Assembly: GCA_913058255.1 (NCBI GenBank)
Contig: CAJXQU010000003.1
Span: 62,001-126,000, forward strand
DNA length: 64,000 nt
Reading direction: 5' to 3'
Source of the DNA: an uncultured Pseudomonadota bacterium
GTDB lineage: Bacteria; Pseudomonadota; Gammaproteobacteria; CAJXQU01
Part shown: in pieces, positions 19,834-21,868 of the stretch
Layout: each line of letters begins with the position of its first letter
How positions within the stretch are numbered: position 1 is the stretch's first letter
Position numbers and translations under genes: made by a program
Notes under the pieces: model-generated
Seen by the model: only the letters and a program-made list of their open reading frames with translations
Databases searched by the model: none
What the model was told of the DNA's origin: nothing

Positions 19834-19950
19834 ATCCTCTACGAACCACTTTAACACTTGATCTTTAAATCTATTTTCTCAACTAGCTTTTCGAATTCTC
19901 TATAGGCTGATAATATCTGCTTCTTTATAATAAGCTACTAGGCATATAGA

Positions 19951-20262
19951 ATGAATATGAAGGGGATATCAAAGCACATGCTTATTGGAGTAACTATTCC
20001 AGTAGCTTTTATTATTAATGCCTTTCTAATCCCAGAACCTTATTCACACCCTTTAATTTATGTTGGATTGGCACCCTCCAAACTAATGCCTTTTCTAGAG
20101 AATCGTGAACTTATGAGACATGCAACAGAATTTGTATTTGGTCGAATGACGCCAAATTTCGCTCCAATTCAAATCATATTTTTAATCATATTCTGGTTTT
20201 TGCTCTCAATGTTGTCATCAATATCTGTGGCTCATTTAAAAATGGTGCGTAAAAATTCCTAA
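19951..20262 (+). CDS. Small two-helix membrane protein, possible gene cassette
   Basis: A 103-residue protein with hydrophobic segments near residues 9-28 (LIGVTIPVAFIINAFLIP) and 74-95 (IIFLIIFWFLLSMLSSISV). No family is recognised. The stop codon TAA is the first part of an attC-like hairpin, the arrangement typical of an integron gene cassette. A second start, ATG 19957, is possible. Coding quality is moderate: it is short and composition is AT-rich compared with the operon upstream. Confidence 0.6.
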   Translation: MNMKGISKHMLIGVTIPVAFIINAFLIPEPYSHPLIYVGLAPSKLMPFLENRELMRHATEFVFGRMTPNFAPIQIIFLIIFWFLLSMLSSISVAHLKMVRKNS

Positions 20263-20337
20263 CAAACACATTAAAAGTCGCCCACAAAAAGCATGGGCTG
20301 GACTCGCTAACGATCACCTTTTATTGCGGCGTTAGCT
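20257..20337 (+). other. attC-like recombination site
   Basis: The segment has the architecture of an attC site. The outer arms CTAAC (20259-20263) and GTTAG (20331-20335) are complementary. Inside them CACATTAAAAG (20267-20277) pairs at 9 of 11 positions with CTTTTATTGCG (20318-20328), with unpaired spacers between the two helices. A GCCCA/TGGGC mini-hairpin occupies part of the centre. It begins at the stop codon of the gene before it, and the GGCGTTAG end is common in attC sites. The core GTTAGCT departs from GTTRRRY at one place. No integrase gene is in the window. Confidence 0.5.
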
Positions 20338-20376
20338 CTCTTATCATAGCAGCTAGGCATTCGCAAGTTCCGAGAA

Positions 20377-20586
20377 ATGAGAGACAAGATATCTAGGCCT
20401 TCATAGATTCACGTCAAAGCAGTTTGACTCTCATATTAATGAAAAAATGAGATGCTAGACATCTAGGCCTCCATGGATTCATATCAAAACAGCTAGACTC
20501 TCACATTCATGAAAAAATGAGATTCTAGGTATCTAAACTTCAATAGATTCACTTCTAATTTAATAGCCTCTCACTTTTAGCGATAT
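20377..20586. repeat. Three 70-bp tandem repeats with conserved pairing potential
   Basis: Units start at 20377, 20447 and 20517, each exactly 70 bp. Units 1 and 2 match at 57 of 70 positions by hand alignment; units 2 and 3 at about 46. Each can fold: outer stem TGAGA (2-6) with TCTCA (53-57), a second stem at 9-12 with 47-50, and an inner hairpin ATCTA (15-19) with TAGAT or TGGAT (28-32). The pair 10-49 changes from A-T to T-A between units. The array ends 74 bp before the fic start. Function unknown. Confidence 0.8.
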
Positions 20587-20660
20587 TTGACTTTCAAATA
20601 TATTGAAATATAATAATCAAACCATATTGATGCCAATATTTATCCTACCGTGAGAGACTA

Positions 20661-21791
20661 ATGGAAATTAAGGATCTAGATCTAGAAAATGCAGTAGATT
20701 ATCACTACGAGCAATTTCCGCCTAAACAGTTGAACTATGAAAATTTCGTTGATGGCTTAATTAAGGCCACTGACGCGATAGCTCGATATGATCAGATGCT
20801 TAAGAATATGCATAATAGTGAGATATTATTAGCTCCTCTAAGAAATCAAGAAGCGGTTATTTCCTCGAGAATGGAGGGAACTGTGAGTACGATGGATGAG
20901 ATTCTAAAATACGAAGCAGATCATGAAGGGGAAGCTACAGAAACTCTGAATGTACGATCGGAAGTAATAGAAACCATTCTTTATCAGAGAGCATTAACAG
21001 CCGCACAAAAAGCAATGAATGATGGGTATCCCATTTCTCAATCGATGATAAAAGCAATCCATCAGCGACTTCTGTCGTTTGGACGAGGAGCCAAAAAATC
21101 TCCTGGGGAGTTTAAAACAGAGCAAAACTATCTTGCTGATAGGAATAAGAAGAAAATATTATTTGTTCCAATTCGCCCTGAGAAATTACAAGATGGCTTA
21201 GATGTATTGTTTGAATATATAAGTAACAATACTGAGCCAGCACTAATTAAATCGGCAATGACACACATTGAGTTTGAAGCATTGCACCCATTTAAAGATG
21301 GTAACGGGCGGATTGGTCGAATGCTAATAACTCTAATGCTATGGAAGTCTGGCACCATATCAGCTCCTCATTTCTATGTGAGTGGTTATTTCGAAGAAAA
21401 TAAAGACGAATACATCGATACTATGAGGCGTGCATCAGAAACTGGAAACTGGGATGAATGGTGCTCATTCTTTCTGACAGCAATCGAACAGCAAGCAATA
21501 AGAAACTTAGCTATTGCTGAAAATATAAGAGAGCTCTACGAAGAAATGAAACAGATATTTTCTGACACCTTGTCTTCGAAGTGGAGCGTAACAGCCCTTG
21601 ACTTTGTATTTACAAATCCTGTGTTCCGCAACAATAAGTTCACATCTAATAGCGGTATTTCTGCAGCAACAGCAGCACGATTCACAAGGACGCTATTGGA
21701 TGAAGGAATTATTCGAACTGTTGAAGAGGCGTCAGGAAGAAGACCTGCACTATACTCTTTTGAGTCGTTAATGAATCTAGTTCGAGTATAA
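20661..21791 (+). CDS. Fic family protein, class II
   Basis: A 376-residue protein with the complete Fic motif HPFKDGNGRIGR (from His209), so the nucleotide-transfer site is intact. The N-terminal part carries the inhibitory motif S68-x-x-x-E72-G73 (SSRMEG), placing it with class II Fic enzymes such as the Shewanella SoFic group. An N-terminal Fic_N-type domain precedes, and the C-terminus looks like a winged helix (SAATAARFTRTLLDEGIIR). Such enzymes attach AMP to target proteins, often themselves. No separate antitoxin is adjacent. Confidence 0.92.
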   Translation: MEIKDLDLENAVDYHYEQFPPKQLNYENFVDGLIKATDAIARYDQMLKNMHNSEILLAPLRNQEAVISSRMEGTVSTMDEILKYEADHEGEATETLNVRSEVIETILYQRALTAAQKAMNDGYPISQSMIKAIHQRLLSFGRGAKKSPGEFKTEQNYLADRNKKKILFVPIRPEKLQDGLDVLFEYISNNTEPALIKSAMTHIEFEALHPFKDGNGRIGRMLITLMLWKSGTISAPHFYVSGYFEENKDEYIDTMRRASETGNWDEWCSFFLTAIEQQAIRNLAIAENIRELYEEMKQIFSDTLSSKWSVTALDFVFTNPVFRNNKFTSNSGISAATAARFTRTLLDEGIIRTVEEASGRRPALYSFESLMNLVRV

Positions 21792-21868
21792 AGGCGGTTC
21801 CAAACTCAAACTTTTTATCAAGAAAAATAATATAAATACATCAGTCTAACCTATCGATAAAAACCTCC

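What the first reader, a model, noticed from the sequence alone, without database searches (positions are those of the whole stretch)
20377..20586. Three 70-bp repeats with conserved RNA-like folding before a Fic gene
Three units follow each other with an exact 70-bp period. Each can form the same two-part fold: an outer TGAGA/TCTCA stem and an inner ATCTA/TAGAT hairpin. Between units the sequence changes but pairing is mostly kept: unit position 10-49 goes from A-T to T-A, 12-47 from G-T to G-C, and one inner pair becomes a wobble. Compensating changes are what a selected RNA structure leaves behind, though only three units are available. The array ends 74 bp before an intact class II Fic gene. 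Tandem repeat RNAs ahead of a toxin-like gene are known from type III toxin-antitoxin systems, but with a different toxin. A repeat RNA or protein-binding array controlling a Fic enzyme would be new to me.
Basis: partly seen in the sequence, partly recalled or inferred. Interest (0 to 1): 0.75.

Follow-up and report, generated by a model that had tools for sequence, protein, structure and literature searches.

The report
Operator array before Fic toxin gene
The three 70-bp repeats are not a folded RNA but a strictly spaced array of DNA half-sites, conserved across many bacterial phyla directly upstream of one family of Fic (Sofic-like) enzymes, which very probably bind it with their own DNA-binding tail to keep their own gene shut down.

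Summary
The repeats are real (three 70-bp units, 20378-20587; fic starts at 20661), but the RNA reading fails. Homologous Fic genes (about 60-86% identical to the window's) from Pseudomonadota, Bacteroidota, Desulfobacterota, Nitrospinota, Planctomycetota and others carry the same array. Each unit holds four 11-bp half-sites (consensus TTTGWYTMTCA) in alternating orientation with gaps 4-4-4-14, giving exactly 70 bp. Pairs of sites 70 bp apart occur in 58 of 76 loci (159 pairs; 1.8 in shuffles). In 493 kb of flanking DNA all 136 strong units lie within 620 bp upstream of fic, and genome-wide scans find almost nothing elsewhere. Arms complement non-partner arms as well as their own partners, and G-U is not preferred over A-C, so the compensating changes come from repeated protein-binding sites. 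The last half-site carries the -35 box in about half of the loci. Fic has a C-terminal winged helix, no neighbouring gene is conserved, and half-sites diverge with Fic, including a switch (TCA to CAA/CAG) where recognition-helix Arg340 is lost. Best explanation: cooperative autorepression by Fic, as shown for CccR with just two boxes. New variant of a known kind; binding itself is inferred, not shown.

The parts
20378..20447 (+). Unit 1: half-sites A' 20378-20388, B 20393-20403, B' 20408-20418, A 20423-20433, then a 14-bp spacer
   Evidence: Composite profile score 62.3 bits; TRF
20448..20517 (+). Unit 2: half-sites A' 20448-20458, B 20463-20473, B' 20478-20488, A 20493-20503, then a 14-bp spacer
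   Evidence: Composite profile score 47.0 bits
20518..20587 (+). Unit 3: half-sites A' 20518-20528, B 20533-20543, B' 20548-20558, A 20563-20573, then a 14-bp spacer
   Evidence: Composite profile score 36.7 bits
20586..20636 (+). Promoter-proximal half-sites: TTTGACTTTCA 20586-20596, also read as A' TGACTTTCAAA 20588-20598; TAATAATCAAA 20611-20621; ATTGATGCCAA 20626-20636. They overlap the -35 and -10 boxes.
   Evidence: Sequence; CWA-N6-TWG junction at 20618; model hit 82586-82639 of contig C3
20587..20614 (+). Predicted sigma-70 promoter TTGACT-16-TATAAT (11 of 12), downstream of the three full units and overlapped by the last half-sites
   Evidence: chance expectation in the region 1.9; the same placement in 33 of 67 loci
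20651..20661 (-). Half-site TGAGAGACTAA touching the fic start codon
   Evidence: Sequence; the Rheinheimera relative L036 has TGAGAGCCTAATG at the same place
20661..21791 (+). fic: class II Fic adenylyltransferase (376 aa), Sofic-like, with a C-terminal winged helix (H309-318, H324-330, recognition helix H335-347, wing 352-366)
   Evidence: Pfam, PADLOC SoFic E 6.8e-108, AlphaFold2 mean pLDDT 90.5, Foldseek best match SoFic 3zec/3eqx

Best explanation
The array is a DNA operator. Each 70-bp unit offers four 11-bp half-sites (A'-4-B-4-B'-4-A-14) in alternating orientation. The Fic protein binds them through its C-terminal winged helix, probably as dimers that bind cooperatively along the array. 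The last half-sites cover the -35/-10 boxes and reach the start codon, so binding shuts off fic transcription and holds a toxic AMPylating enzyme at a very low level. Loss of bound Fic (titration, dilution, change of state) would derepress the gene. Shown here: the array, its spacing, its conservation, its almost exclusive location upstream of fic, the absence of RNA-specific covariation, and co-divergence with Fic. Inferred: that Fic is the binder, that the effect is repression, that binding is cooperative, and what triggers release.
For: (1) 7-mers of the half-site are hugely enriched upstream of fic (GATAGAC in 29 loci vs 1.5 expected). (2) Fixed lags of 70/23/40/30/47/17/53 bp: 159 pairs at 70 bp vs 1.8 in shuffles. 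(3) 139 units in 69 of 78 loci. (4) 136 of 136 strong units in 493 kb lie within 620 bp upstream of fic. In 10 whole genomes 42 of 44 model matches sit at fic, and the other two are marginal, about 23 bits. In the own genome all six matches are at fic. (5) The last half-site carries the -35 box at offset 0/-1 in 33 of 67 loci. (6) No neighbour gene is shared by more than 3 of 79 loci, so Fic is the only constant partner. (7) Confident C-terminal winged helix. (8) Half-site profiles diverge with Fic sequence (rho 0.61-0.66); distal triplet is TCA-type with R/K340 and mostly CAA/CAG in the nine loci without R/K340. (9) Precedent: CccR, a class II Fic with a C-terminal HTH, represses its own promoter by binding AGATAATCAT-N26-ATGATAATCT (PMC9755527), a box resembling this half-site.
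Against: No binding or expression data. The correlation of half-sites with the winged helix (partial 0.28 +- 0.06) is not clearly higher than with other parts of Fic (0.15-0.26), so co-divergence could be co-inheritance. The R340 switch rests on nine loci, mostly Bacteroidota. Spacing differs from CccR's two boxes. Fic relatives at 38-40% identity carry similar sites downstream of the gene instead.
Confidence: 0.77

Rival explanations
1. A transcribed repeat RNA with a conserved two-stem fold controls Fic, in the manner of a type III toxin-antitoxin system.
For: Repeats precede a toxin-like gene. Covariation scores exceed column shuffles for the outer and extended stems.
Against: The same excess arises from coherence of all half-sites within a locus: in arrays of three or more units partner arms match 8.38/11 and non-partners 8.62/11. 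In two-unit arrays there is only a small excess, about 0.5 of 11 bases, across the 14-bp gap. G-T and A-C mismatches are about equal (86/78, 86/115, 97/77). Folding z -1.89. No Rfam match. The promoter lies downstream of the units.
Confidence: 0.04
2. The array is an operator for a different, host-encoded DNA-binding protein, not Fic itself.
For: Binding by Fic is not shown; co-divergence is not clearly stronger for the winged helix than for all other regions.
Against: The same architecture occurs in unrelated phyla with no conserved neighbour gene, there are practically no other sites in the genomes, and half-sites follow Fic sequence.
Confidence: 0.12
3. The array serves mainly as a recombination, replication or partition site, for example part of a mobile cassette end.
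For: fic, the array, a 103-aa ORF and an attC-like element form an insertion absent in a sister genome; an integron integrase is in the genome; several Bacteroidota loci have an attC-like right end about 250 bp upstream of fic.
Against: Sites are in fixed phase with the promoter and are found in many contexts, chromosomal and plasmid, mostly without attC.
Confidence: 0.04

Closest known systems
CccR, class II Fic effector and autorepressor of Yersinia pseudotuberculosis (PMC9755527)
   Same: Class II Fic with C-terminal HTH; inverted boxes near -35/-10; box AGATAATCAT/AGATTATCAT resembles TTTGATTATCA; negative autoregulation shown there
   Different: CccR has one pair of 10-bp boxes 26 bp apart. 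Here four half-sites per 70-bp unit are repeated one to four times with 4-4-4-14 gaps. CccR is also a secreted effector; nothing here suggests secretion.
SoFic/Sofic anti-phage defence protein (PADLOC SoFic; PDB 3eqx, 3zcn; PMC12249575)
   Same: Domain order, fold, inhibitory motif and PADLOC model
   Different: 25% identical; NCBIfam SoFic equivalog cut-off not reached (152.8 of 550 bits). A 2023 paper states that SoFic DNA binding had not been shown (PMC10628234). The E. coli Sofic antitoxin AS1 is a downstream small protein; no conserved downstream gene is seen here.
Coxiella CbFic2, a DNA-binding Fic (PMC10628234)
   Same: Fic with a DNA-binding HTH; DNA alters AMPylation activity
   Different: No specific operator known; targets a host histone
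Type III toxin-antitoxin systems (ToxIN and relatives)
   Same: Tandem repeats directly before a toxin-like gene
   Different: There the repeats are a transcribed RNA antitoxin processed by an RNase toxin; here DNA half-sites precede a promoter and the enzyme is a Fic AMPylase

Membership tests
Autoregulating class II Fic with HTH (CccR-like) | Inhibitory motif (S/T)xxxE(G/N) N-terminal to the Fic core | tested here: met
   S68, E72, G73 invariant in 38 aligned sequences
Autoregulating class II Fic with HTH (CccR-like) | C-terminal (winged) helix-turn-helix | tested here: met
   AlphaFold2 model; fold match SoFic
Autoregulating class II Fic with HTH (CccR-like) | Inverted boxes overlapping -35/-10 of its own promoter | tested here: met
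   (promoter predicted, not mapped)
Autoregulating class II Fic with HTH (CccR-like) | Operator of just two boxes 26 bp apart | tested here: not met
   Half-sites start 15/15/15/25 bp apart in repeated 70-bp units
Autoregulating class II Fic with HTH (CccR-like) | Protein binds the boxes and represses | not testable with these tools
   Needs gel shift, footprint or reporter
Sofic anti-phage system | PADLOC SoFic profile | tested here: met
   E 6.8e-108, 359 bits
Sofic anti-phage system | NCBIfam SoFic equivalog cut-off | tested here: not met
   152.8 bits vs cut-off 550
Sofic anti-phage system | Protects against phage | not testable with these tools
   No assay
Type III toxin-antitoxin | Toxin of ToxN/CptN/TenpN RNase fold | tested here: not met
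   Fic domain and SoFic fold
Type III toxin-antitoxin | Repeat RNA with conserved structure | tested here: not met
   No partner-specific covariation in longer arrays and no G-U bias

The most novel reading that the evidence does not exclude
The array is more than a repressor site: Fic bound along the array is held in an inactive conformation, so the DNA itself acts as the antitoxin, and disruption of the nucleoprotein array (for example by phage takeover of the chromosome) both derepresses the gene and releases active enzyme.
Probability: 0.12. Interest if true: 0.88.

Novelty: new variant of a known kind. Interest (0 to 1): 0.62.

Why it matters
How single-gene Fic/Sofic defence toxins are kept silent is open: wild-type Sofic was hard to clone because leaky expression is toxic (PMC12249575). 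A phylum-crossing, precisely spaced operator array found almost only before these genes points to tight self-repression and gives an immediately testable system: binding, stoichiometry, specificity switch at residue 340, and whether DNA binding restrains AMPylation. It also gives a DNA signature for finding such genes.

Tried and rejected
RNA structure: covariation counts on 48 relatives, own-partner vs other-partner tests, folding, Rfam. A paired test seemed to show partner specificity across the 14-bp gap (+1.42 matches). It compared inner with edge sites; restricted to inner sites of longer arrays it vanished, leaving a weak +0.49 (sd 0.17) in a regression. A simple 35-bp period (2 x 35 = 70) was rejected: lag 35 gives 7 pairs, against 159 at lag 70. 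A claim that half-site divergence tracks the winged helix specifically was tested and not clearly supported. Phage records hold no relative at E 1e-30. Literature searches found no description of such arrays.

Full report
Observation. The window (G000:C3:62001-126000) holds three tandem 70-bp units at 20378-20587 (TRF) before an intact 376-aa Fic gene at 20661-21791.

What the unit is. The search for related loci brought 80 loci encoding relatives of this Fic (about 60-86% identical) from many phyla. Reading their upstream DNA showed the same kind of sequence in nearly all. 7-mers such as GATAGAC, TTGTCTA and CATCAAA are strongly enriched (29 loci vs 1.5 expected for GATAGAC). A profile fitted to these sites gives 643 sites vs 220 in dinucleotide shuffles, and fixed distances between them: 70 bp (159 pairs, 58 of 76 loci, 1.8 expected), 23, 40, 30, 47, 17 and 53 bp; 35 bp is not a period. 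A composite profile resolves the anatomy: A'(11)-4-B(11)-4-B'(11)-4-A(11)-14 = 70 bp, with 139 units in 69 of 78 loci.

Location. In 493 kb of DNA around 79 relatives, 136 of 136 strong units lie within 620 bp upstream of fic. In ten whole genomes, 42 of 44 model matches lie at the fic locus and two are marginal. In the window's own genome all matches are at fic. Plasmid-borne relatives down to 48-51% identity have units too (L146-L148). More distant Fic proteins (36% identity or less) have none. Those at 38-40% (L011-L013) carry half-sites just downstream of the gene.

Promoter. In the window TTGACT-16-TATAAT lies at 20587-20614 (11 of 12; about two such matches are expected by chance in the region), inside the last half-sites. 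In 33 of 67 loci the best promoter starts exactly at the last A' half-site. Half-sites continue to the start codon.

RNA or DNA. Column shuffles are exceeded, but this reflects coherence of all half-sites within a locus. In arrays of three or more units an arm matches its hairpin partner in 8.38 of 11 positions, its outer partner in 8.36 and unrelated arms in 8.62. Two-unit arrays leave a small excess (0.49, sd 0.17) across the 14-bp gap, which a DNA dyad would also give. G-T and A-C mismatches are about equal; a selected RNA should favour G-T. The single-strand fold is unremarkable (z -1.89).

Who binds. Fic is a class II enzyme with a confident C-terminal winged helix, closest in fold to SoFic and matched by the PADLOC SoFic model. 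No other gene is conserved beside it (at most 3 of 79 loci). Half-site profiles diverge with Fic sequence (rho 0.61-0.66); the winged helix has the highest partial correlation, but not clearly so. Residue 340 on the recognition helix is R or K in 71 of 80 sequences, with distal triplet TCA or similar; in the nine without it the triplet is mostly CAA/CAG. The published precedent is CccR, which binds AGATAATCAT-N26-ATGATAATCT in its own promoter and represses it. Binding by the window's Fic remains an inference.

Mobility. In sister genome G002 the two flanking genes are 29 bp apart (L118). G001 likewise has no fic match at the cut-off, with a short stretch without fic between the same genes (L117). 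In the window about 2 kb containing a 103-aa ORF, an attC-like element, the array and fic is inserted. The genome encodes an integron integrase.

Verdict. An operator array for Fic self-control, conserved across phyla, not found in the searched literature. It is a new, elaborate variant of the CccR kind of control rather than a new kind of RNA system.

Noticed in passing
window 20256-20336: attC-like integron element after a 103-aa ORF (19951-20262, no Pfam family) and just before the array; single-strand DNA fold z -2.0; no second copy in the genome, but an integron integrase is present.
   Followed up: partly
window 19834-21868: About 2 kb insertion (ORF, attC-like element, array, fic) between two genes that are adjacent in sister genome G002 (L118).
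   Followed up: partly
L056, L061, L064, L065, L070, L073, L077 upstream of fic: Bacteroidota loci share an (A/C)CGTTGT(AGG) element about 240-260 bp upstream of fic, at the left edge of the array, resembling an attC right end.
   Followed up: no
L011, L012, L013 just 3' of fic: Fic genes 38-40% identical to the window's carry similar half-sites directly downstream of fic instead of upstream.
   Followed up: partly
L123 about 1430-1590 (genome G249): An array match (27.9 bits) directly downstream of a HipA-like gene, with no fic nearby.
   Followed up: partly
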